Virus record (IMG/VR): IMGVR_UViG_3300042691_011931
Coordinates: 1 to 20,110 of that record
Reading direction: 5' to 3' (one strand)
DNA length: 20,110 bases
Source of the DNA: a virus
Position numbers and translations under genes: made by a program. Shown one piece after another: positions 1 to 18,025 of this stretch. Each line of letters begins with the position of its first letter. The first letter of the stretch is position 1. A model generated the notes under the pieces. It saw only the letters and a list, made by a program, of their open reading frames with translations, was not told where the DNA came from and searched no databases.

Positions 1-75
1 GTAGTTTGCCCCAATACATTTTAAAGTTGTTATGTAAAACAACTCCTTGAGGTGGAGGTAAACCTTTTTTTTAAT
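1..75 (+). terminator. Tail of an upstream structured transcript with a possible terminator
   Basis: No gene is visible here. AGTTGTT (25-31) pairs perfectly with AACAACT (38-44) around a 6-nt loop. A short AGGT/ACCT hairpin (56-65) then runs into eight T residues (65-72), a weak factor-independent terminator shape. The upstream gene or RNA lies outside the window. The stem is only 4 bp, so the termination role is tentative. Confidence 0.35.
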
Positions 76-90
76 TAAAAACAACTAAAA
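75..90 (+). promoter_or_regulatory. Repeated gene-leader motif, copy 1
   Basis: TTAAAAACAACTAAAA lies just before the start codon at 94. An identical 16-mer occurs at 304-319 before the start at 329. A near copy at 3924-3938 precedes an ATG at 3946. The position suggests a leader or translation-initiation element, as A-rich leaders are common where Shine-Dalgarno sites are weak. It could also be part of a phage promoter. The function is inferred only from repetition and position. Confidence 0.4.
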
Positions 91-93
91 AAT

Positions 94-294
94 ATGAATG
101 ATATAATAGCTCAAAAATTATTAATATATATTGCTAATAATTTAATAACTGAATCAAGATTTTTAACACCTAATCCAAAAACAAGTGTTGAAGTAATAGG
201 ATTACTTGATAAAATAGCAGAATTAAGAGACATACCAAAAGAACAAAATGGTATTGAATTTAATCAAATAATGGATACATTAAAACAAATTTAA
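94..294 (+). CDS. Small hypothetical protein (66 aa)
   Basis: I do not recognise this protein. It has 66 residues, is probably soluble and mostly helical, has no signal peptide, and carries a proline break near residues 25-28 (LTPNPK). The ATG is 3 nt after the repeated leader motif at 75-90, which supports the start. It is followed after 34 nt by a lipoprotein-like gene with the same leader. It appears to be the first complete gene of an accessory cluster. Confidence 0.6.
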   Translation: MNDIIAQKLLIYIANNLITESRFLTPNPKTSVEVIGLLDKIAELRDIPKEQNGIEFNQIMDTLKQI

Positions 295-303
295 AATATT
301 AAA

Positions 304-319
304 TTAAAAACAACTAAAA
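304..319 (+). promoter_or_regulatory. Repeated gene-leader motif, copy 2
   Basis: This is an exact second copy of TTAAAAACAACTAAAA, 9 nt before the ATG at 329. Two exact 16-mers at gene starts within 250 bp suggest a shared leader or expression signal, although AT-rich composition makes partial matches cheap. Confidence 0.4.
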
Positions 320-328
320 TAAACAATT

Positions 329-748
329 ATGAAACAACAAACAAAAACTAAATTATTGTTAATAGGATTAATAATAATTTTACTAGCATCATGTGTACCA
401 GCAATAGCTCAAGATTCAGTTAATTTAGAATTATCTATTTTATTAGATAACAAAAAAGTTAATCAGAAATATGAGTTAATTTTAATTGATTCTAAAAATA
501 ATCAAACAATTTACAAAACTGTAGATTCTAAAGTTTTATTAGAATTAGAATTTAATAATGAATATGTTATAACAGTTAGTAGTCCTTACCATAATAGTAA
601 AACTATATATTTTAACACTAAAGCACCTAAAGAAAATTGGTATGTAATAACAACAATTGGATTAGATAGTGATGATAATTGTAATATTATTGCAGGTGGT
701 ATAAAATATAACAAAAAGTTAAAAACATTTCAAAAATATTTATTATAA
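329..748 (+). CDS. Putative exported protein or lipoprotein (139 aa)
   Basis: The N-terminus has a positively charged start (KQQTKTK), a hydrophobic stretch at about residues 9-20, and LLASC, which fits a type II signal-peptide lipobox with Cys22. An AIAQ sequence at about residues 25-28 could instead be a signal peptidase I site, so secreted versus lipid-anchored is undecided. The mature part (to residue 139) is Asn/Lys-rich with alternating hydrophobic residues suggesting beta strands; no family is recognised. A phage protein exported to the host envelope could act in superinfection exclusion or surface modification, but that is inference. Confidence 0.65.
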   Translation: MKQQTKTKLLLIGLIIILLASCVPAIAQDSVNLELSILLDNKKVNQKYELILIDSKNNQTIYKTVDSKVLLELEFNNEYVITVSSPYHNSKTIYFNTKAPKENWYVITTIGLDSDDNCNIIAGGIKYNKKLKTFQKYLL

Positions 749-933
749 ATATATTAATCAGAGTAACCTTTGTGATACTGATTATAACCTCGCCAAGATT
801 AGGTTAGACTTGGTCATATTAACAATAAGTTATCCTGAGAACAAATGTAGCCAAGGAAAATGGATCCTAACAAAAGGCAGATGTGTAGCTTGCCAAGACT
901 AAAGGGCACATATTAATCTTTAAATAAAATAAA
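749..933 (+). ncRNA. Gene-free structured region A, candidate ncRNA
   Basis: This stretch has no ORF and is visibly richer in G and C than the neighbouring genes. TAATCAG (755-761) pairs with CTGATTA (778-784). TAACCT (785-790) pairs with AGGTTA (801-806), and CCAAG (793-797) can pair with CTTGG (809-813), which crosses or competes with it. GGCA (876-879) pairs with TGCC (891-894) while ATGTG (881-885) pairs with CACAT (907-911), an H-type pseudoknot topology. It lies between two lipoprotein-like genes. It could be an independent ncRNA or the leader of the next gene; no known family is recognised. Confidence 0.4.
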
Positions 934-1347
934 ATGAAACAATTAATTTTAATTCTTACAATTATTACAATTGTATCTTGTAAAAAACAACAAACAATTA
1001 TACCTAATCAACAATCTACTACACCTACATGTGATAGTACTGAATGTTTAGGTTTATCAGCTAATGATTTCTTCACATTTAAAACTAATATCAATACAGA
1101 TACCGTATTAACAGGTAAAAAGATTAGAGCTACTTGGACAGGTGCATCAGATACTACAAAATATACTGATGGTATAATTGAAATTAAACATGAATACCGT
1201 ATTACAAGTAATCATATTAATTTAACTAATGTCATATCACCAGTAGAATTAAAGTTTTGGGCTAAACGTGGTGGTGCGCATCAAGGTATTGGATTAAAAT
1301 TTAAATCAGGTAAAAAAGCATCATTTTATAATGATAGATTACCTTAA
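934..1347 (+). CDS. Putative lipoprotein (137 aa)
   Basis: A short signal sequence (MKQLILILTIITIVSC) ends in a lipobox-like IVSC with Cys16, followed by KKQQ and a Gln/Thr/Pro-rich linker to about residue 35. The rest is a globular domain with strand-like segments (IEIKHEYRI, VELKFWAKRGG) and a pair of cysteines (Cys33, Cys38). No family is recognised. With the gene at 329 it makes two envelope-directed proteins in one small cluster. The start is clear because the signal peptide begins at the ATG. The function is unknown; a role in host surface change is possible. Confidence 0.65.
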   Translation: MKQLILILTIITIVSCKKQQTIIPNQQSTTPTCDSTECLGLSANDFFTFKTNINTDTVLTGKKIRATWTGASDTTKYTDGIIEIKHEYRITSNHINLTNVISPVELKFWAKRGGAHQGIGLKFKSGKKASFYNDRLP

Positions 1348-1438
1348 AATACTTAGTAGTTGTCCCTCTAATCAAAGGGCAGTATAATAGCGGACACTTA
1401 TGTACGAAACAGAACTATTATCGAGCATGAAACTACCA
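1348..1438 (+). ncRNA. Gene-free structured region B, candidate ncRNA
   Basis: GTAGTT (1356-1361) can close with AACTAC (1431-1436). Inside, ATAATAG (1384-1390) pairs with CTATTAT (1415-1421). TGTCC (1361-1365) can pair with GGACA (1392-1396), which crosses that helix and so gives pseudoknot topology. CCCT/AGGG (1364-1367/1376-1379) is a competing hairpin. A terminator follows at once, so this may be a discrete small RNA or a structured 3' end of the lipoprotein mRNA. No family is recognised. Confidence 0.4.
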
Positions 1439-1460
1439 AAAGGGTGCAAAGCCCTTTTTT
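1438..1460 (+). terminator. Factor-independent terminator
   Basis: An AAGGG/CCCTT hairpin (with an inner GC/GC pair and AAA loop) runs into TTTTTT. It follows the lipoprotein gene and structured region B and precedes the membrane-protein gene at 1472. This is one of the clearest intrinsic terminator shapes in the window. Confidence 0.65.
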
Positions 1461-1471
1461 AAATTAAAATT

Positions 1472-1654
1472 ATGAAAATATTTACAAAAATGTCAATAAT
1501 TGGAATATTAATAATATATTTATTAATTTCCTATGTATATTTAAATATAAATTTACTAACATGGAATCATGATACTAGAGTTATATTTGTAATACTTGTC
1601 ACAGGATGGATAGTTATATGTGGTATCATAGCCACAGCTATAATCAACAAATAA
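1472..1654 (+). CDS. Small membrane protein (60 aa)
   Basis: The protein is 60 residues with two predicted transmembrane helices, about residues 8-27 and 37-57, joined by a short polar loop containing NHDTR. No family is recognised. It starts 12 nt after the terminator T-run, so it probably has its own promoter or depends on readthrough. Size and topology resemble many phage inner-membrane accessory proteins; a role in lysis or exclusion cannot be decided from sequence. Confidence 0.6.
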   Translation: MKIFTKMSIIGILIIYLLISYVYLNINLLTWNHDTRVIFVILVTGWIVICGIIATAIINK

Positions 1655-1676
1655 ATTTATTAACCAAAAATCATAT

Positions 1677-1835
1677 ATGAAAAAAAACAAGTACAAAGAA
1701 TTAGAATGTTTATTTGCATGGGCTGCATTTTATTCAAATGGTAAAATTTTAGAAAGAGAAACTTTACCTAATCAAGGAAAATTTAATGTAGTTAAAAAAC
1801 AAATTGATAATTTAAAAAAAGAAATAATTGATTAA
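1677..1835 (+). CDS. Small hypothetical protein (52 aa)
   Basis: This short gene reads MKKNKYKELE onward and ends ...NLKKEIID with a TAA at 1833-1835. It is lysine-rich, with an aromatic patch (LFAWAAFY, residues 12-19) and a C-terminal amphipathic helix. It is supported by placement: it fills the gap between neighbours and its stop is one nucleotide before the ATG at 1837, the close spacing seen throughout the window. No family is recognised. Confidence 0.55.
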   Translation: MKKNKYKELECLFAWAAFYSNGKILERETLPNQGKFNVVKKQIDNLKKEIID

Positions 1836-1836
1836 C

Positions 1837-2115
1837 ATGGAAGATTATAAAAAAATACCAGTAAATGAAACATTAGAATATCTAATGAAACGTCATCAAA
1901 TTAACATGGAAATAAATGCTAACAAAGTATCTATTGATCGTGAAGTGTTTAAAAAAAATTCTTTAGAGAAAGAAGCTTTAAAAAAAGCTAAAAAAGAATA
2001 TTTATTAAATGTAAATACACAAAAATATTCTGATAGATTAAGTGAAACAATTCAAAAGATTGTAAAAGATCCTATTATCTGTGGTAATTTAATATTAATT
2101 GTTAAAAACAAATAA
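1837..2115 (+). CDS. Small hypothetical helical protein (92 aa)
   Basis: Ninety-two residues starting MEDYKKIPVN. A TTG at 1828 is in frame, but the ATG at 1837 sits right after the previous stop and is the more natural start. The middle (about residues 28-62) is lysine/glutamate-rich and probably a long helix or coiled coil. No conserved motif is recognised. Confidence 0.55.
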   Translation: MEDYKKIPVNETLEYLMKRHQINMEINANKVSIDREVFKKNSLEKEALKKAKKEYLLNVNTQKYSDRLSETIQKIVKDPIICGNLILIVKNK

Positions 2116-2136
2116 TATTTAAAATATTTTCTTGGC

Positions 2137-2403
2137 ATGAAAATACACCTGAATAGTCTAATCCAGCTAAATGTCTACGGTAATAATAAATGGATTATAT
2201 GGGGGCGTCATGGTAAGAATGTGGTTAAAGTTTATAATAAGCAAGTATTGCATTACCTATTAACTCGTGCAATTAATAAATTAGTAGGTAAAAGAATAAT
2301 TGGCAACAATGATTCAAAACTAGGAACTATCCTAGACTTAAGACATGCTTTAGCTAACAATATGTTAGTTAAGACAGAAGAGTTAGAACTTCAAGCAGCT
2401 TAA
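2137..2403 (+). CDS. Small hypothetical protein (88 aa)
   Basis: Eighty-eight residues; the first half looks beta-rich with NKWIIWGRHGKNVV, then a basic helical segment around residues 41-52. It is better balanced in codon use than its neighbours. No family is recognised. Its TAA is followed directly by a 6-bp hairpin with a GAAA loop (2404-2419), which may mark the 3' end or begin the structured RNA region. Confidence 0.55.
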   Translation: MKIHLNSLIQLNVYGNNKWIIWGRHGKNVVKVYNKQVLHYLLTRAINKLVGKRIIGNNDSKLGTILDLRHALANNMLVKTEELELQAA

Positions 2404-2448
2404 GTTAGAGAAATCTAACAAATCCATGTAGTTGTAACAACCAGGATT
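2404..2448 (+). ncRNA. Paired hairpins opening the 529-nt gene-free RNA region
   Basis: GTTAGA (2404-2409) and TCTAAC (2414-2419) form a perfect stem capped by a GAAA tetraloop. AATCC (2421-2425) pairs with GGATT (2444-2448), enclosing GTTG/CAAC (2431-2434/2438-2441). These hairpins begin immediately after the stop codon. They are the first part of 2404-2931, which holds no protein gene but contains structured and tRNA-like elements listed separately. Confidence 0.4.
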
Positions 2449-2492
2449 GTATGGTTAAATAACAGAGTTTATTTGTTCTTATAGAAAAACAT

Positions 2493-2586
2493 CTCGGCGT
2501 GTTAAGTAGGCCGTCCACTTAACTAAACTTGAAGAAAGTTATAAACAATAATCATGTTAACGCGAGTTCGACTCTCGCCGCCTCCA
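2493..2586 (+). tRNA. tRNA-like sequence, type II shape, degenerate or unusual
   Basis: The 3' end is textbook: T-stem GCGAG/CTCGC around TTCGACT (2562-2578), then CGCCTCC as acceptor 3' strand and A2586 as discriminator. Upstream, TTAAG/CTTAA can form a D-like stem, AACTT/AAGTT an anticodon-like stem, and AACA/TGTT a long variable arm, as in Ser or Leu tRNAs. The 5' acceptor strand (CTCGGCG, 2493-2499) pairs at only four of seven positions, and the anticodon-like loop lacks a clear U33. It may be a decayed tRNA, a tRNA mimic, or a molecule with an unusual 5' partner. Identity not assigned. Confidence 0.4.
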
Positions 2587-2619
2587 CTTAAATATACAGA
2601 GATTAAACTTTTGTATAAA

Positions 2620-2694
2620 TATTAGGTGAGTCCGTAATAGGAACTTTAAATGATTAACTACCGTATGGATGGGTTATGCCGATACAGCCTAATA
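2620..2694 (+). ncRNA. Recurrent AGGTG/CAGCCT structured RNA motif, copy at 2620
   Basis: TATTAGG (2620-2626) pairs with CCTAATA (2688-2694). AGGTG sits at the 5' inner edge and ACAGCCT at the 3' inner edge. An imperfect hairpin AGTCC/GGAACT and then TTAAATG follow the AGGTG. The same frame is present at 11651-11720 and 19971-20050. This copy lies inside the long gene-free RNA region rather than directly before a start codon. No known riboswitch or ribozyme family is recognised. Confidence 0.45.
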
Positions 2695-2795
2695 CTCGGT
2701 GTACCTAGAGAATAAATTGGTACTATTGGTCTCTGAAGAAAAGGGAACACGGTTAGCTGCAAGATAAGCTATGACTGATGGAAAGACATCATTAC
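2695..2795 (+). ncRNA. Structured gene-free stretch between RNA motif and tRNA-like element
   Basis: GTACC/GGTAC and AGAG/CTCT can interleave to give a pseudoknot, followed by TAGCT/AGCTA and GATG/CATC hairpins. No ORF of note is seen. It may belong to the same transcript as the flanking structured elements; no family is recognised. Confidence 0.3.
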
Positions 2796-2912
2796 AGGGT
2801 AATGGAAACATAAATACTAGTTGGTGTGGTCCAGGATGCAACTTTTAGTTAGTTAATATAACCGTTAGGTGTTCACAACTGATTGCCGTAAGTTCAAATC
2901 TTACTTACCCTA
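2796..2912 (+). tRNA. tRNA-like sequence with oversized body (117 nt)
   Basis: AGGGTAA (2796-2802) is exactly complementary to TTACCCT (2905-2911). A perfect T-arm, GTAAG/CTTAC around TTCAAAT (2888-2904), precedes the 3' strand and A2912 is a discriminator-like base. The body between is about 25-40 nt longer than in a normal tRNA, and no convincing anticodon arm can be drawn. It contains TAGGTGTT, also present in the odd part of the tRNA at 4173-4262. It could be a tRNA with an insertion or a tRNA-like RNA. Identity not assigned. Confidence 0.4.
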
Positions 2913-2931
2913 CAAAATAAATTAAAATAAT

Positions 2932-3273
2932 ATGATAAAAAGATTTTATAAAGAAAAAGATGGTAAATGGTATGTGGATCTTCCTGAATGGACTGGGTCT
3001 AAATCTGAATTACAAATGGTAGGTGGTGCTGATACAATGTTAGATATTATTGCAGAAGATGATAATGAAGTTTATTTACAATTATCTACTGAAAAATCAG
3101 AAGGTTTTGATATATTACAATTTATGCATTTAGCAACAGATTATGAAAACGGAGCATTTTATCATATGCCTGAATATAATGGATTTAAATTTGATCTTAA
3201 GATTTGGCTCTGTGATGTAACTCTCTTCGTTTTTAAAGAATTCCCTAAAAGTATTTATATTAAGAAATATTAA
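2932..3273 (+). CDS. Phage-type conserved protein, DUF6717-like (113 aa)
   Basis: The text GKWYVDLPEWTGSK (residues 12-25), GGADTMLDII (31-40) and a C-terminal WLCDVTLFVFKEFPKSIY resemble a small family found in phages and bacteria that I recall as DUF6717; that assignment is from memory. The protein is 113 residues and soluble, and its biochemical role is unknown. It starts 19 nt after the tRNA-like element and stands alone between two structured RNA regions. Confidence 0.7.
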   Translation: MIKRFYKEKDGKWYVDLPEWTGSKSELQMVGGADTMLDIIAEDDNEVYLQLSTEKSEGFDILQFMHLATDYENGAFYHMPEYNGFKFDLKIWLCDVTLFVFKEFPKSIYIKKY

Positions 3274-3427
3274 GTTTATCTATTCTTTAAAAATAGATTG
3301 GTGGATCCTAATCATAAATTGGTTAGACTCTATATAGTAAAGTTATTGTACTGGTGTAAAAATGACTCATTTGGATGAGGTAAACACATTACTATATTAA
3401 ATTAATTAATAATCTAAAACTAAGAAC
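3274..3427 (+). ncRNA. Gene-free structured region D, candidate ncRNA
   Basis: Four clear helices are seen: TCTATT/AATAGA (3279-3284/3292-3297), CTAATC/GGTTAG (3308-3313/3321-3326), a 9-bp ATATAGTAA/TTACTATAT (3332-3340/3389-3397), and inside it CTCAT/ATGAG capped by TTGG (3366-3379). The first hairpin is followed by TTGGTGGAT, which resembles TTTGTGGAT after a similar small hairpin at 6461-6478. No protein gene is seen. It may be a separate RNA or the 5' leader of the gene at 3428. Confidence 0.45.
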
Positions 3428-3919
3428 ATGAGCACGTTAAAGAAATGTCAAGTAGTTATGCTTTCTACTAATGAAAAAAGTAATATAAGCTTAGGTGATT
3501 CTGGTAAAGGATTAATATATCATACTCATACTAAACCAGAATATGATAAAAGAACTTATCAACATCTATATATTTTATCAGATGATGAAATTAAAGAAGG
3601 TGACTGGTGTTTGTTTAAACAAATAATTGGTTCTGAATATAAGTTATGTAAAATAACTTATAAATTTGGGAATCAACTAACTTCGTTATTAGAAAATGGT
3701 AATAAACAAGAAGAAGCTTCTCAGTATTATAAAAAAATCATTGCTACTACTGATGAGTCTTTAGGTTTACCTCAACCATCTCAATCATTTATTGAAAAAT
3801 TTGTAGAAGAGTATAATAAAGGTAATGTGATTACTGAAGTGATTTGGGACTGTCTTCATAATATAGAAGGCTCATTTAATAGAGAAAAATTAACTAAATG
3901 GATTAAAGAAAATTTATAA
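3428..3919 (+). CDS. Conserved Bacteroidetes-phage protein of unknown function (163 aa)
   Basis: The region YQHLYILSDDEIKEGDW (about residues 39-55) and the later KKIIATTDESLGLPQPSQSF (about residues 101-120) are word patterns I recall from many small proteins in Bacteroidetes phages; the molecular function is unknown. The C-terminal part (FIEKFVEEYNKG) is helical. There is no signal peptide or membrane segment. The ATG follows structured region D. Confidence in the gene is high, in any function low. Confidence 0.75.
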   Translation: MSTLKKCQVVMLSTNEKSNISLGDSGKGLIYHTHTKPEYDKRTYQHLYILSDDEIKEGDWCLFKQIIGSEYKLCKITYKFGNQLTSLLENGNKQEEASQYYKKIIATTDESLGLPQPSQSFIEKFVEEYNKGNVITEVIWDCLHNIEGSFNREKLTKWIKENL

Positions 3920-3923
3920 AATA

Positions 3924-3938
3924 TTAAAACAACTAAAC
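3924..3938 (+). promoter_or_regulatory. Near-copy of the repeated leader motif
   Basis: TTAAAACAACTAAAC matches the 16-mer leader at 75-90 and 304-319 with one A deleted and a changed last base. As with those copies, an ATG follows within 10 nt (3946). It is the main reason to consider the short reading frame there. Confidence 0.35.
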
Positions 3939-3945
3939 AGTAATT

Positions 3946-4017
3946 ATGCAGACCACGTTAAAAAAAGCGATTTTGTGGAGGCGTAAATACAAAGCCCTAA
4001 GAAATATCGGGAGGTAG
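3946..4017 (+). CDS. Possible micro-ORF (23 aa, basic) in structured region E
   Basis: An ATG placed like those after the repeated leader motif opens a 23-codon frame, MQTTLKKAIL onward, ending at TAG. The peptide is very basic (several Lys and Arg). Against coding: the stretch is richer in G and C than local genes, uses the rare TAG stop, and continues into folded sequence with CCAC/GTGG pairing. It could equally be an RNA whose start resembles a gene leader. The rest of 3920-4080 holds no other gene. Confidence 0.25.
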   Translation: MQTTLKKAILWRRKYKALRNIGR

Positions 4018-4080
4018 AGACGAGGTTGAGTATCCTACTTAGAAGGCAGTCAGTTGTTTTTAAAAATATAAATAAATAAA

Positions 4081-4162
4081 GCCTCTGTGTTGGAATTGGC
4101 AGACATCAATGACTTAGGATCATTGGTCGAAAGGCGTGTGGGTTCGAGTCCCATCCCGGGTA
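4081..4162 (+). tRNA. tRNA-Leu(UAG), acceptor stem imperfect
   Basis: The anticodon stem AATGA/TCATT holds loop CTTAGGA, so the anticodon is UAG (leucine CUA). TTGGAATTGGCAGACA is a typical Leu D-arm, TGGTCGAAAGGCG a typical type II variable arm, and GTGGG TTCGAGT CCCAT the T-arm. The 3' strand is CCCGGGT with discriminator A4162; CCA is not encoded. The 5' strand GCCTCTG should be close to GCCCGGG: positions 5 and 6 face C and cannot pair, and pairs 1 and 4 are wobbles. The tRNA may be decaying or need repair of the acceptor. Confidence 0.8.
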
Positions 4163-4172
4163 CAAATTATTT

Positions 4173-4262
4173 AGTCAGGTATCTCAAATGGTTAGAGTAC
4201 AGAATAGGTGTTAATTCACTGAGGGAAAGCTGAGGTTACAGGTTCGAATCCTGTCCTGACTA
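4173..4262 (+). tRNA. tRNA, possibly Asn(GUU), with enlarged anticodon region
   Basis: The acceptor stem AGTCAGG/CCTGACT is perfect, the D-arm CTC/GAG encloses AAATGGTTA, and the T-arm ACAGG TTCGAAT CCTGT is canonical, preceded by a normal variable loop AGGTT. Between D-arm and variable loop about 16 extra nucleotides break the anticodon arm. GTGTTAA resembles an Asn loop with anticodon GUU, with CAGAA/TTC..CTG as a bulged stem. CTGAGG appears twice (4219-4224 and 4230-4235), suggesting a local duplication. The anticodon assignment is tentative. Confidence 0.6.
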
Positions 4263-4297
4263 CTAAATTAAATATAAACTAATTAAAAACTATTATT

Positions 4298-4663
4298 ATG
4301 CAAAATGAAATTATTACATTTGAAACAGCTAAACTAGCTAATGAAAAAGAATTTAATATATCTCAAGATTCTGGATATGAATTAAATGGTAAATATTTTG
4401 ATAATTCACAAGATTATGATGGTTGTAAATTTGGTTATTGTAAAGAAATTTATCTAGCCCCAACTCAATCATTATTACAACGTTGGTTAAGAGAAATTCA
4501 TAAAATTCATTTAACTATAACTTCAATTTCTCAAGAATCTTGGCAATGTCATATTACTAAAAAAGGCGATAGTTTAGGTAAAAATTACATTGAAGATGCT
4601 TATACTTACGAACAAGCTTTGGAAGAAGGACTTTATGAAGCACTTAAATTAATCAAAAATTAA
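4298..4663 (+). CDS. Conserved Bacteroidetes-phage protein of unknown function (121 aa)
   Basis: ITFETAKLANEKEF (residues 5-18) and YLAPTQSLLQRWLREIHKIH (about residues 52-71) match a pattern I recall as recurrent in Bacteroidetes phage genomes, with no assigned biochemical role. The C-terminal YTYEQALEEGLYEALKLI is a helix typical of this type. The protein is soluble. It is the first gene after the tRNA pair and is followed after 13 nt by the next small gene, so it likely opens the operon of small genes leading to the polymerase. Confidence 0.75.
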   Translation: MQNEIITFETAKLANEKEFNISQDSGYELNGKYFDNSQDYDGCKFGYCKEIYLAPTQSLLQRWLREIHKIHLTITSISQESWQCHITKKGDSLGKNYIEDAYTYEQALEEGLYEALKLIKN

Positions 4664-6512: not shown

Positions 6513-8399
6513 ATGGATAAATTATATTTTATAGGTAATACTGAAGTATTTGAAAGTACTTTATATAAAAAAGCATCTATAGAACAATGTTTAGAGTGGT
6601 TAAATATAATATCTGAAGTTAATTTAGATACAGAAACTGAAGGTATGTTTAATCATTCTAATAAAATAGTAATGTTACAGTTAGATTTTAATAATGTTAG
6701 TTATGTTATAGATGTAAGAACTGTAGATATTTCTCCGTTAAAAAAAAGATTAGAAGAAATACTAGTAGTTGGTCAAAACTTAAAATTTGATTATAAGTTT
6801 TTAAAATTACATGGGATTGAATTAAATAATATCTATGATACATTATTAGCAGAATGTTGTATAACTAACGGTAAAGAAGAACGTGAATTAAATCTAAAAG
6901 CTTTAGCTAAAAAGTATTGTAATATTGATTTAAATAAAGACGTTAGAAATCAATTTACTAAATTAAATGGACAACCTTTTACTGAAGCACAAATTGTTTA
7001 TGGAGTAGGAGATGTTACATGTCTAACTGAAATTAAAACTAAACAATTATTAGAAATAGCTAGGTTAGATATAATAGAATGGGTGAATAATGAAATGAAA
7101 GCCTGTTTACCATTAGCTGATATAGAATATAATGGAATGGGTTTTGATAAAGAAGCTTGGTTAAAACTTGCAAATAAAGCAGAATTAAATGTAATTAATT
7201 ATACTGAAGAACTAGATGAATTAACTAAACAAGAACCTAAATTAAGTCATTTTGTTAAACAAGAAGTTCAAGGTAATCTATTTGCAGAAATAGATGAATC
7301 ATTTAGTCATGGGAGAACCATAGATATTAAATGGTCTAGTCCTACACAAATGGATAAAGTATTTAAAGCTTTAGGTTTAGACATTGAAAAAACAGGTGAA
7401 AGATTTTTAACTAAATATCAAAATGATTATCCTTTAGTTAAAAAATTTATTGATTATAAAAAACAAGCTAAATTAGTTACTACTTATGGTAAAAAATTTT
7501 TAAACTATGTAAATCCAACAACTCAAAGAATTCATACTAGTTTTTGGCAAATATTAGATACTACAAGAGTTTCTTCAGGTGATAAATATTCTCCTAACAT
7601 GCAAAATATTCCAGCTAAAGTAGAATATAGAAATTGTTTTATTCCTAAAAAGGGTTTTAAAATGGTATCATGTGATTTTAGCGGTCAAGAGTTACGTTTA
7701 ACAGCCTTTGGTAGTAAAGAACCTTTATGGGTAGATGCATTTAATAAAGGTGAAGATTTGCATTCCAATGTAGCATCAATGGTGTTTAAAGTACCATTAG
7801 AAAATGTTAGAGATAAACCAGATTTTCTTAGAGGTAAATCTTATAGAGATGCTGCTAAAACTGTTAATTTTGGATTAGTTTATGGTATGTCAAAATATAA
7901 GTTAGCTGATACTTTATCTATTGAAGTAGATGCTGCTGATATGATTATTAAAAATTATTTCAAAGCTACTGTACAATTAAATAATTTTTTAGCAGGATGC
8001 CGAGCTTATGGTATGAAATATGGTTATATTAGAAGTTTTTCTCCATATAAAATCATTAGATATTTTCCTAAATGGAATCCTGTTAAAGAAACTATGGATT
8101 TTAAAGAAATAGGTGTAATAGAACGAGCTTCAATGAATACCCCAATACAGGCTAGTGGTGGACAGATGACTAAAAGAGCTTTAGTTAAATTGAGAGAATA
8201 TATTAAAGTTAATAATTTACAAGAAAAAGTTTTTATAGTTATGACTGTACACGATCAAATAGATTGTGAAGTAGAAGAATCATTTGTAGATGAATGGGCT
8301 TTAATTCAAAAAGAAATAATGGAATCTGCTGGTAAAGAAATAATTACTAATGTACCTGTATTATCAGATATTACAATTAGTGATTGTTGGACTAAATAA
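6513..8399 (+). CDS. polA: Family A DNA polymerase with 3'-5' exonuclease domain
   Basis: A 628-residue replicative polymerase. The N-terminal DEDD exonuclease shows DTE (D39, E41), NLKFDYKF (D93) and YGVGD (Y163, D167). Polymerase motifs follow in order: motif A DFSGQELR (D388), motif B R445-x3-K449 with NFG (452-454) and YG (457-458), and motif C VHDQ (H580-D581-Q582). The usual VHDE has Gln in place of Glu. There is no 5' nuclease domain, as is common in phage enzymes. Together with the PrimPol-like, helicase and SSB genes downstream it forms the replication module. The preceding hairpin may control its expression. Confidence 0.95.
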   Translation: MDKLYFIGNTEVFESTLYKKASIEQCLEWLNIISEVNLDTETEGMFNHSNKIVMLQLDFNNVSYVIDVRTVDISPLKKRLEEILVVGQNLKFDYKFLKLHGIELNNIYDTLLAECCITNGKEERELNLKALAKKYCNIDLNKDVRNQFTKLNGQPFTEAQIVYGVGDVTCLTEIKTKQLLEIARLDIIEWVNNEMKACLPLADIEYNGMGFDKEAWLKLANKAELNVINYTEELDELTKQEPKLSHFVKQEVQGNLFAEIDESFSHGRTIDIKWSSPTQMDKVFKALGLDIEKTGERFLTKYQNDYPLVKKFIDYKKQAKLVTTYGKKFLNYVNPTTQRIHTSFWQILDTTRVSSGDKYSPNMQNIPAKVEYRNCFIPKKGFKMVSCDFSGQELRLTAFGSKEPLWVDAFNKGEDLHSNVASMVFKVPLENVRDKPDFLRGKSYRDAAKTVNFGLVYGMSKYKLADTLSIEVDAADMIIKNYFKATVQLNNFLAGCRAYGMKYGYIRSFSPYKIIRYFPKWNPVKETMDFKEIGVIERASMNTPIQASGGQMTKRALVKLREYIKVNNLQEKVFIVMTVHDQIDCEVEESFVDEWALIQKEIMESAGKEIITNVPVLSDITISDCWTK

Positions 8400-15654: not shown

Positions 15655-16747
15655 TAGTATAGAAAGTAAAATTAAAGCTAATTTAGCTAAAAAAGAATCA
15701 GGTGTTGCTACTTCTATCAATTTCCCATTTCCAAGATTATCACAAAGGTTCCCAGGATGGACTAAAGGTTCACATACAATTATTACTGCCAATTCAGGAA
15801 TTGGTAAAACTAAAATATGTAAATTTTTAACAGTCAATTCAATTTATTCTTTTTTAAAAGCAAATCCTTTAATTAAAGTTAAAGTATTTTATTTTGCATT
15901 AGAAGAAAGTAAAGAATCTTTTTGGTTAGATATGATTGCATCAATATTATATACAAATTATGATATACAATTATCACCACATCAAATAATGTCTTTAGGT
16001 AATTATACAATTTCAAAAGAACATTTAGAAGTAATTCAAAGTGTTAAACAAGAAGTTGAAGATATGGAAAGATATATTGAAGTAATAGATAATATATTTA
16101 ATCCTTATGGTATCTATAATCATGTTAGACAATTTTTTAATGATCCTAATTTAGGTTCTTATGAAGTTGTTCAAACAGATAAAGGAGAGATTAAAGGAAA
16201 ATTTATATATAAAGATAGTAATCAATATGTTTTTGTTGTTACTGATCAAATCAATTTATTGAATCCTGACACAACAAGTCCTTATGGAGAACCTCAAAGA
16301 GATACTAGAGAAGCAATGAATTACTTTTCTAAAGAATATTGTCTTAAGCAAATGTGTAAACGCTTAGATTGTACTGTAATAAATATACAACAACAAGCTG
16401 CAGATAAAGAAAGACAAGAGTTTTTTAAAGGAGCTTCTATTGAGAAAAAACTTGAACCTTCATTGGACGGATTAGGTGATAGTAAATTAACACAAAGAGA
16501 TGCTGACTTAATTTTAGGTTTATTTGCTCCTACAAGATTTGAATTAGAATCTTATAGAGGTTATGATATAAATAAACTTAAAGATAAATACAGATGTTTG
16601 ATATTTCTTAAGGATAGACATTTTGGATTAGCAAATAATTATGTACATTTGTATTTTAATGGAGCCATCAATCAAATGAAGGAATTACCAAAAGCAGACG
16701 AAATGTATGACCATATTTACGAATCAATACAAAATGGAGAATTTTAA
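15644..16747 (+). CDS. dnaB: DnaB-type replicative helicase, RecA core (367 aa)
   Basis: The favoured start is ATG 15644. Residues 49-56 (ANSGIGKT) are Walker A, preceded by the typical GWTKGSHTII lead. KVFYFALEES follows Walker A as motif 1a. YVFVVTDQINLL is the Walker B strand, and CTVINIQQQAADKE and FLKDRHFG match the late DnaB motifs. The N-terminal scaffold domain of DnaB is missing, so this is the motor domain alone, as in several phage helicases. It probably unwinds the fork for the polymerase. Its 3' end overlaps the GIY-YIG gene by 14 nt. Confidence 0.85.
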   Translation: MIFDSIESKIKANLAKKESGVATSINFPFPRLSQRFPGWTKGSHTIITANSGIGKTKICKFLTVNSIYSFLKANPLIKVKVFYFALEESKESFWLDMIASILYTNYDIQLSPHQIMSLGNYTISKEHLEVIQSVKQEVEDMERYIEVIDNIFNPYGIYNHVRQFFNDPNLGSYEVVQTDKGEIKGKFIYKDSNQYVFVVTDQINLLNPDTTSPYGEPQRDTREAMNYFSKEYCLKQMCKRLDCTVINIQQQAADKERQEFFKGASIEKKLEPSLDGLGDSKLTQRDADLILGLFAPTRFELESYRGYDINKLKDKYRCLIFLKDRHFGLANNYVHLYFNGAINQMKELPKADEMYDHIYESIQNGEF

Positions 16748-17474
16748 TAGTGTAGGTGTTTACACAATAACTAATGTAATTAATGGTAAAATTTATGTTG
16801 GCAGTACTGTCAATTCTTTTAATAAAAGAAAAAATCAACATTTTTCATTATTAAAACAAAATAAACATACAAATCCTTATTTACAAAATAGTTTTAATAA
16901 ACATGGAGAAAATAATTTTAAATTTGAAATTTTAGAAACTTGCTCAGTTGAATTTTGTTTATCTCAAGAAAAATATTGGATAAATATGTTAAATACTAAA
17001 TCTACATTATACGGATTTAATGTTATTGATCCAATAACAAATAGATTAGGATTTAAATATACTGAAGAAAGTAAATTAAAGATGAAAAATTCAAGATTAG
17101 AATATATTAAAAAACATGGTGTAAATAAACACACTGAAGAATCTAAACTTAAAATATCAAAAATTAAAAAAGGTATCAAAATGAGTAAAGAAGCTTGTTT
17201 AAAAATGTCAGCTAGTAGAAAAGGTAAATTTAATGGTGTAAATAATAATTATTTTGGTAAAAAACATACACCAGAAATATTAGCTAAAATTAAAGCAAAT
17301 AAAGATTATACTAAACAGTATAAAAAAGTTGCAAAATGTACATTGTTAGGTGAGATTATTGAAATTTTTGAATCATGTAAAGCTGCAAAAATTGCAAATA
17401 ACAATATAAGTATAAGTTGTGCTTTAAAATATCCACAAAGAACAAGTGGTGGTTTTAAATGGATTTATATTTAG
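16734..17474 (+). CDS. GIY-YIG homing endonuclease with NUMOD repeats (246 aa)
   Basis: The favoured start is ATG 16734 (MENFNSVGVY). GVYTI and KIYVGS (residues 8-24) are the GIY and YIG elements, KRKNQH supplies the conserved Arg, and LSQEKYWINML the catalytic Glu region. A NUMOD3-like stretch follows (HTEESKLKISKIKKG, KEACLKMSASRKG, KHTPEILAKIKAN), and a C-terminal NUMOD1-like DNA-binding end (LGEIIEIFESCKAAK ... GGFKWIYI). It is free-standing, not inside an intron, and lies 32 nt before the intron-containing Sak4 gene. It ends with TAG, rare here, which fits recent acquisition. Confidence 0.9.
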   Translation: MENFNSVGVYTITNVINGKIYVGSTVNSFNKRKNQHFSLLKQNKHTNPYLQNSFNKHGENNFKFEILETCSVEFCLSQEKYWINMLNTKSTLYGFNVIDPITNRLGFKYTEESKLKMKNSRLEYIKKHGVNKHTEESKLKISKIKKGIKMSKEACLKMSASRKGKFNGVNNNYFGKKHTPEILAKIKANKDYTKQYKKVAKCTLLGEIIEIFESCKAAKIANNNISISCALKYPQRTSGGFKWIYI

Positions 17475-17752: not shown

Positions 17753-18025
17753 TAAGAAATATTATTAATAATAAATTAATTGTGTAAGTCCTCATTAAAC
17801 CCTTTTAAAACTGGAAAGCCTTATTTAAGGTAATCAGTTACCAAGCTAGTGAATGGTATAATAGTAGCTAGAAAGGTTCAACGACTAGTAGATAAGTAAC
17901 CTATCTGAATCTACCACGAAATAAGGGCGTCTAAAAATATTAGATGATGAGATAGTCTGAACTGCAAATATAAATAGACTAAATTGCAGAATATAGGGAT
18001 AAAGAGCCTTATAGATAACAAAATG
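17753..18025 (+). ncRNA. Group I intron 1 in the Sak4 gene (no ORF, 273 nt)
   Basis: P1 is GAGGAT (17747-17752) with GTCCTC (17788-17793). ACTGGAAAGCC and AATCAGTTACCAAGC form the P3-P4-P6 core, and P7 is GACTA (17883-17887) with TAGTC (17953-17957). The intron ends in G18025. Removal places TTC ACA CAT directly after GAT, giving VEDFTHF. The short size fits an ORF-less group I intron. A homing enzyme for it might be the nearby GIY-YIG protein, which is inference. Confidence 0.85.

What the first reader, a model, noticed from the sequence alone, without database searches (positions are those of the whole stretch)
749..4080. Dense field of structured non-coding regions A-E between small genes
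Regions 749-933, 1348-1460, 2404-2931, 3274-3427 and 3920-4080 have no convincing genes, are richer in G and C than flanking genes, and hold long perfect helices and pseudoknot-like topologies. Such density suggests a set of phage small RNAs rather than spacer.
Basis: partly seen in the sequence, partly recalled or inferred. Interest (0 to 1): 0.65.

Follow-up and report, generated by a model that had tools for sequence, protein, structure and literature searches.

The report
Phage RNA island with new RNA families
The gaps between small genes of this phage, whose nearest named relatives are crAss-like phages, are filled with real structured RNAs: a phage tmRNA, tRNA-like RNAs, and at least two RNA families absent from Rfam, one of which recurs once per genome in quite different phages and usually sits just upstream of tRNA-like structures.

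Summary
Folding energy of A-E is no better than that of coding windows. Comparative evidence carries the case. Region C (2404-2931) is composite: the 3' half of a phage tmRNA (2201-2586, misread upstream as a gene), an unassigned stretch, a conserved three-hairpin RNA (2688-2774, 'C-RNA') and a cloverleaf tRNA-like RNA (2796-2911). C-RNA has no Rfam match. It is found in 29 IMG/VR stretches and one MAG, one copy per record, in PolA crAss-like, Mu-like and other phages. It shows compensatory changes in its hairpins and is absent from INPHARED, PLSDB and 394 other Bacteroidota genomes. Where a tRNA-like follows, acceptor and T arm persist while the anticodon arm varies or is missing; elsewhere a terminator often follows. 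Region B is a second new family (8 phages, own terminator, strong covariation). D and the 5' part of A are conserved in 3-4 phages, with little or no covariation test. E has no relatives and holds a 23-codon ORF behind a gene-like leader, so is probably not an RNA gene. Best reading: stand-alone phage RNAs, freed by RNase P and terminators, acting in trans on host machinery (function inferred).

The parts
1..75 (+). Family G RNA, cut off by the window edge: hairpin AGTTGTT[ATGTAAA]ACAACT plus terminator-like GAGGT..ACCTTTTTTTT
   Evidence: Homologs in L024, L020, L011, L161 and L201; hairpin differs compensatorily between them (GTATT/AATAC, GTGTT/AACAC, GTTGTT/AACAAC) by eye on the alignments
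751..830 (+). Region A, 5' module: hairpin plus H-type pseudoknot candidate (AACCT..AGGTT with CCAAG..CTTGG)
   Evidence: 97% identical over 72 nt in L024, 82% in G001, 78% in G424; in L024 and G001 it lies shortly before B
831..933 (+). Region A, 3' half: possible second pseudoknot (GGCA..TGCC with TGTG..CACA)
   Evidence: Sequence only; no homolog found
1352..1462 (+). B RNA: closing helix GTAGTT/AACTAC, inner helix, conserved GTTGTCC..GGCA and AGCATGAAAC, own intrinsic terminator (about 1438-1462)
   Evidence: 8 phages; 91-92% of cells paired, 9-10 of 16 pairs with two-sided changes, 0/500 shuffles reach the covariation score; model found in 7 of 18 related records, E 1e-18 to 3e-30; no Rfam match
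2148..2200 (+). Conserved leader directly 5' of the tmRNA (AATCCA..TGGATT hairpin)
   Evidence: 89-92% identical in L001 and L024 next to their tmRNAs; 20-mer found in 3 IMG/VR contigs, all tmRNA loci
2201..2586 (+). Phage tmRNA; tag frame 2302-2403 from GGC: GNNDSKLGTILDLRHALANNMLVKTEELELQAA (33 aa)
   Evidence: ARAGORN; Rfam RF00023 65.9 bits, gathering 47; acceptor GGGGGCG/CGCCTCC with G3:U70, other pairs covary in L024 and L003
2590..2687 (+). Unassigned stretch between tmRNA and C-RNA
   Evidence: No homolog, z = 0.1
2688..2774 (+). C-RNA core: H1 (GTACC..GGTAC), UAUU, H2 (UCUCU[GAAGAAA]AGGGA), ACACGG, H3 (UAGCU[GCAAGAUA]AGCUA)
   Evidence: 29 IMG/VR stretches and one MAG; covariation 0/500; one copy in each of 25 of 29 records; W match 101.6 bits; no Rfam match at E up to 5
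2773..2790 (+). H4 hairpin TGATG[GAAAGA]CATCA between C-RNA and the tRNA-like
   Evidence: Stem changes with pairing kept in L010, L012 and L004; repeated before a second tRNA in L151; may belong to the tRNA leader
2796..2911 (+). tRNA-like RNA: acceptor AGGGTAA/TTACCCT, long conserved D-arm hairpin, variable third arm, T arm GTAAG[TTCAAAT]CTTAC; no 7-nt anticodon loop
   Evidence: 4 phages, 100% of 92 cells paired, 6 pairs with two-sided changes, 0/500 shuffles
3272..3395 (+). D RNA: ATCTATT[CTTTAAA]AATAGAT hairpin, TGGTGGATC, further helices
   Evidence: 92% identical over 160 nt in L024; first 36 nt identical in L003, with different helices downstream
3946..4017 (+). 23-codon ORF in region E, preceded by AAAACAACTAAA as are the genes at 94 and 329
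   Evidence: and sequence; region E has no relatives in 18 records
4081..4163 (+). tRNA-Leu-like (anticodon TAG) with two acceptor mismatches
   Evidence: Rfam 27.6 bits, below the cut-off of 29
4173..4263 (+). tRNA with enlarged anticodon arm (ARAGORN calls Pro-AGG, anticodon doubtful)
   Evidence: Rfam 46.1 bits

Best explanation
Window 1-4263 is an RNA island of a phage whose DNA polymerase is closest to crAss-like phages. Small genes alternate with stand-alone structured RNAs. Shown: a tmRNA gene; a B-RNA with its own terminator; a C-RNA of three hairpins with near-invariant joining segments; a cloverleaf tRNA-like RNA; all conserved in other phages, the last three with compensatory changes tested here. 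Inferred: the RNAs are cut from longer transcripts by host RNase P at the tRNA-like structures (RNase P needs only acceptor plus T arm, which would explain why anticodon arms decay or vanish) or end at intrinsic terminators. C-RNA and B-RNA would then act in trans during infection, most likely by binding a conserved host protein or ribonucleoprotein (translation or a tRNA- or RNA-targeting defence) through the invariant unpaired segments UAUU, GAAGAAA, ACACGG and GCAAGNUA. The phage tmRNA would add long (33-42 aa) tags to stalled proteins.
For: C-RNA: 25-sequence alignment, 89.6% of cells paired, 9 pairs with two-sided changes, covariation score 0.194 against 0.081 in shuffles (0/500), slid controls 0.03-0.10. 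A divergent copy in L004, not used to build the model, matches at E = 2e-7 to 5e-7 and keeps H2, H3 and H4 with altered pairs. One copy per record in 25 of 29. Unrelated backbones: Mu-type transposase beside it in L145 and L013, PolA in W and L152, exonuclease in L012. The following gene differs, and terminators follow it in L010, L014 and L154. An acceptor plus T arm follows within 55 nt in 12 of 26 loci against 3.1% of random positions, most starting 26-30 nt after H3; some tRNA-likes lack an anticodon arm (L146, L149, L150, L153). RNase P reads only the acceptor/T-arm stack (PMC4919913). B. tRNA-like. tmRNA. Precedent for phage RNAs near tRNA islands: GOLLD and ROOL (PMC12286853).
Against: No transcript data. 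Recruitment of C-RNA used exact patterns, which inflates invariance at H2 and H3. 14 of 26 C loci show no tRNA-like by the automatic test. H1 is imperfect in four sequences including this one. The target and the trans action are not shown. The H4 hairpin may belong to the tRNA leader rather than to C-RNA. For A and D, structure is barely tested.
Confidence: 0.5

Rival explanations
1. C-RNA is a leader that helps mature or control the tRNA or tRNA-like directly downstream, in cis.
For: tRNA-like starts 26-30 nt after H3 in most of the 12 automatic hits; H4 is repeated before a second tRNA in L151.
Against: C-RNA also occurs without a tRNA and with a terminator right after it (L010, L014, L154); the tRNA-like itself is replaceable or reduced to a hairpin (L013, L015, L017).
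Confidence: 0.2
2. B-RNA and C-RNA are cis-regulatory elements (riboswitch or attenuator) of the next gene.
For: B ends in a terminator and lies before a gene in the phages read.
Against: The next gene differs between phages (membrane peptide, lipoproteins, unrelated ORFs; exonuclease or a short ORF after C); many C copies are followed by tRNA-likes, not genes.
Confidence: 0.12
3. The RNAs are decoys against an RNA-binding host defence (type III toxin-antitoxin or anticodon nuclease), as pseudo-ToxI in phage TE.
For: Phage-borne, single copy, invariant loops across unrelated phages; RNA mimicry has a precedent (PMC5086642); a sub-threshold abiF-RNA match lies near C in L151.
Against: No host RNA of this shape was found in 394 other Bacteroidota genomes, so nothing to mimic was identified; the abiF match is below the curated cut-off.
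Confidence: 0.2
4. Remnants of introns or homing elements rather than functional RNAs.
For: ORFs that look like HNH endonucleases sit beside or inside several of these loci (L191, L001, L003, L201); a group I intron lies at 17754-17967.
Against: Compensatory changes in C-RNA, B-RNA and the tRNA-like; no group I or II match at C or B.
Confidence: 0.05
5. AT-rich spacer that folds by chance.
For: MFE z-scores of A-E are ordinary; E has no relatives.
Against: Conservation and covariation of B, the C core and the tRNA-like; a tmRNA above the Rfam cut-off.
Confidence: 0.03

Closest known systems
GOLLD and ROOL RNAs (Rfam families; PMC12286853)
   Same: Structured phage RNAs of unknown function, often near tRNA islands, not tied to one gene
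   Different: Those are several hundred nt and form cages; C-RNA is about 90-110 nt, B about 110 nt, with no Rfam match
tmRNA (RF00023), phage-encoded examples (PMC4131195)
   Same: 2201-2586 has a tRNA-like domain, tag frame, Ala identity pair G3:U70
   Different: Tags of 33-42 aa ending ELEL(Q)AA, against a most frequent length of 10 aa (PMC11915505)
Pseudo-ToxI of phage TE / type III antitoxin RNAs (PMC5086642)
   Same: Phage RNA proposed to occupy a host RNA-binding protein
   Different: No tandem repeats, no toxin partner or host counterpart found
tRNA (RF00005)
   Same: Acceptor and T arm of 2796-2911, covarying in four phages
   Different: Long conserved D hairpin and no anticodon loop, so it is not expected to decode

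Membership tests
tmRNA (2201-2586) | Match to RF00023 over the curated cut-off, full length | tested here: met
   65.9 bits against 47, model positions 1-374
tmRNA (2201-2586) | Closed acceptor stem with G3:U70 alanine identity pair | tested here: met
   GGGGGCG/CGCCTCC; G3:U70 kept in L024 and L003 with other pairs changed; L001 has a bulge
tmRNA (2201-2586) | Tag frame from a resume codon, ending in a hydrophobic ...AA, under protein-level selection | tested here: met
   33-aa frame; W/L024 pS 0.20, pN 0.06; L001/L191 pS 0.58, pN 0.24
tmRNA (2201-2586) | Charging, SmpB binding, trans-translation | not testable with these tools
   needs experiment
GOLLD / ROOL (C-RNA, B-RNA) | Match to the Rfam covariance models | tested here: not met
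   No match at E up to 5 for 1-4400, nor at E up to 2 in L020 8500-11020
GOLLD / ROOL (C-RNA) | Phage-borne, near tRNAs | tested here: met
   12 of 26 loci against 3.1% in controls
tRNA (2796-2911) | 7-bp acceptor, 5-bp T stem with 7-nt T loop | tested here: met
tRNA (2796-2911) | Anticodon stem with 7-nt loop; tRNA call by ARAGORN or Rfam | tested here: not met
Riboswitch or attenuator (B, C) | Constant class of downstream gene | tested here: not met
   Different genes or tRNA-likes follow
Type III antitoxin RNA (C) | Tandem repeats beside a toxin gene | tested here: not met
   One copy per record; toxin genes were not searched systematically

The most novel reading that the evidence does not exclude
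C-RNA is a widely shared phage RNA that disables or redirects a conserved Bacteroidota RNA-binding machine. It is carried by PolA crAss-like, Mu-like and other phages, and is released by RNase P at decaying tRNA-like punctuation marks, so that 'broken' phage tRNAs are processing signals rather than decoders.
Probability: 0.25. Interest if true: 0.85.

Novelty: new variant of a known kind. Interest (0 to 1): 0.6.

Why it matters
It adds at least two covariation-supported phage RNA families that Rfam lacks. One of them crosses phage types that share little else, which usually points to a host-facing function. It also offers a testable reason for odd phage tRNA genes without usable anticodon arms (RNase P cutting signals), and documents phage tmRNAs with conserved tags of 33-42 residues.

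Tried and rejected
Folding energy as evidence: rejected, coding windows score the same. Rfam identity for B and C: none. C-RNA in isolated phages and plasmids by blastn: none. C-RNA as a host RNA: 0 of 394 other Bacteroidota genomes. The pattern from the tmRNA leader was too short, over 100 hits, mostly taken as chance. Two of the four D-pattern hits (L023, L025) lie in a different context without the rest of D and were taken as chance. A strict automatic tRNA-like search found only 7 of 26 against 13 of 1040 controls, so a relaxed one with its own control was used. A helix GTGT/ACAC in C-RNA, considered first, shows no two-sided change, and RNAalifold prefers an extended H1. Papers on noncoding RNAs of crAss-like phages or on degenerate phage tRNAs: nothing describing this was found in the titles and abstracts listed.
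Full report
What the window is. It is a 20,110-base virus record of an AT-rich phage. Its family A DNA polymerase at 6513-8399 is nearest to crAss-like phages among named records (about 30% identity; DNA_pol_A in Pfam). Relatives with 52-91% identical polymerase were fetched from IMG/VR.

Checking the observation. A, B and D hold no sense ORF of 40 aa or more. GC is raised in A, B, C and E but not in D. Folding energies are not exceptional: z from -0.6 to -1.9, while coding windows of similar length range from -2.5 to +1.0.

Region C is composite. Positions 2201-2586 are a tmRNA, so the region starts inside it, and the ORF 2137-2403 that looks like a gene is mainly its 5' half and tag frame. 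Related tmRNAs are in L024, L001 and L003 and L191. The acceptor pairs change between phages while G3:U70, the alanine identity pair, is kept in W, L024 and L003. Tags are 33 aa here and 40-42 aa in L191, L003 and L001, and are conserved as proteins (L001 against L191: 24 of 40 residues identical, pS 0.58, pN 0.24). The most frequent known tag length is 10 aa (PMC11915505). Phage tmRNAs as such are known (PMC4131195).

C-RNA (2688-2774). A 93%-identical copy in L002 led to a pattern search that found 14 viral stretches. A second pattern, which avoids most of the first, found 29, including all the earlier ones, and one Prolixibacteraceae MAG contig carries it next to Mu-type transposase genes. 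The alignment of 25 sequences supports three hairpins: 89.6% of cells paired, 9 pairs with two-sided changes, covariation 0.194 against 0.081 in shuffles, never reached in 500. A model built from it finds exactly one copy in 25 of 29 related records, including a divergent one in L004 that no pattern had found. In L004 the changes in H2, H3 and H4 keep pairing. It is absent from INPHARED and PLSDB by blastn, and from 394 other Bacteroidota genomes by model, under stricter filters. So it is phage-borne and rare in databases, yet spread over PolA crAss-like phages, Mu-like phages (L145, L013) and others such as L012.

What follows C-RNA. A tRNA or tRNA-like acceptor plus T arm begins within 55 nt in 12 of 26 loci, against 3.1% of random positions in the same records; most start 26-30 nt after H3. 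Some are near-normal tRNAs (L152), some have large inserts in place of the anticodon arm (L011, L159), some lack that arm (L146, L153) or are reduced to acceptor and T arm (L149, L150). In L010, L014 and L154 an intrinsic-terminator-like hairpin follows instead. In the window the tRNA-like at 2796-2911 is a cloverleaf with a long conserved D hairpin, shared by four phages with every counted cell paired and six pairs changed on both sides. RNase P recognises the acceptor/T-arm stack only (PMC4919913), so such elements could define the 3' end of C-RNA. That processing step is inferred.

B-RNA (1352-1462). Eight phages; closing helix, inner helix and terminator all covary: 9 of 16 pairs on five sequences, 10 of 16 on eight (that alignment was fitted to the model), 0/500 shuffles for the covariation score in both. 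The model found further copies in records that no B pattern had recruited (G026 and G424, E about 1e-18 to 5e-19). Different genes follow it, so a stand-alone RNA is likelier than a riboswitch.

A, D, G and E. The first 80 nt of A recur in L024, G001 and G424; its pseudoknot is invariant in three and broken in the fourth, where an ORF resembling a homing endonuclease lies alongside. D is 92% identical in L024, and its first 36 nt are identical in L003, where downstream helices differ. A further RNA, G, is cut by the window start. E has no relatives in 18 records (though an empty answer without a positive control is weak) and contains a 23-codon ORF behind the same AAAACAACTAAA leader as the genes at 94 and 329, so a small or remnant gene is likelier.

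Interpretation. The island resembles in arrangement the phage RNAs GOLLD and ROOL, which also lie near tRNA islands and lack a known function (PMC12286853), but neither B nor C matches them or any other Rfam family. Near-invariant loops in unrelated phages suggest a conserved host partner. Which one is unknown; a decoy role has a precedent in pseudo-ToxI (PMC5086642). Shown: conservation, structure, single copy, phage distribution, tRNA-like association. Inferred: transcription, RNase P processing, trans action and target.

Limits. Copies were recruited with exact patterns, so the invariance of H2 and H3 is overstated. Many records are fragments. E-values of home-made models are rough. No expression data exist here.

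Noticed in passing
L191:2306-3045: tmRNA of a related phage is interrupted in its T loop by about 740 nt carrying an ORF on the opposite strand that looks like an HNH endonuclease (not tested by profile); the 3' exon resumes as CCCGGCGGGTCCA.
   Followed up: partly
L001:3160-3655: ORF region resembling a homing endonuclease directly after the tmRNA, then a stray copy of the L191-type tmRNA 3' exon.
   Followed up: no
L001, L003, L024, L191 and window 2302-2403: Phage tmRNA tags of 33-42 residues under purifying selection, unlike the short tags usual in bacteria.
   Followed up: partly
window 4081-4163: tRNA-Leu-like gene with two mismatches in the acceptor stem, below the Rfam cut-off.
   Followed up: no
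L020:10779-10853 and L008:7977-8049: ARAGORN reports a four-base anticodon (ctag) and a UAA-reading (tta) tRNA directly after C-RNA.
   Followed up: no
L151:5723-5758: Sub-threshold match to abiF RNA (28.5 bits, cut-off 37) upstream of C-RNA; H4-type hairpin repeated before the next tRNA at about 6306.
   Followed up: partly
window 17754-17967: Group I intron (Rfam 58.8 bits); a GIY-YIG endonuclease gene lies at 16707-17474.
   Followed up: no
L020:10860-11000, L002:2150-2280, L024:6600-6720, L001:7070-7190, L191:3620-3760: Another shared RNA (family F, ...TGTATAAGCTTA... with a CCACTT..AGTGG terminator), absent from the window.
   Followed up: no
L003:2892-2975: Sub-threshold match to RT-17 RNA (35.6 bits, cut-off 40.4) shortly before an ORF that looks like a reverse transcriptase.
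   Followed up: no
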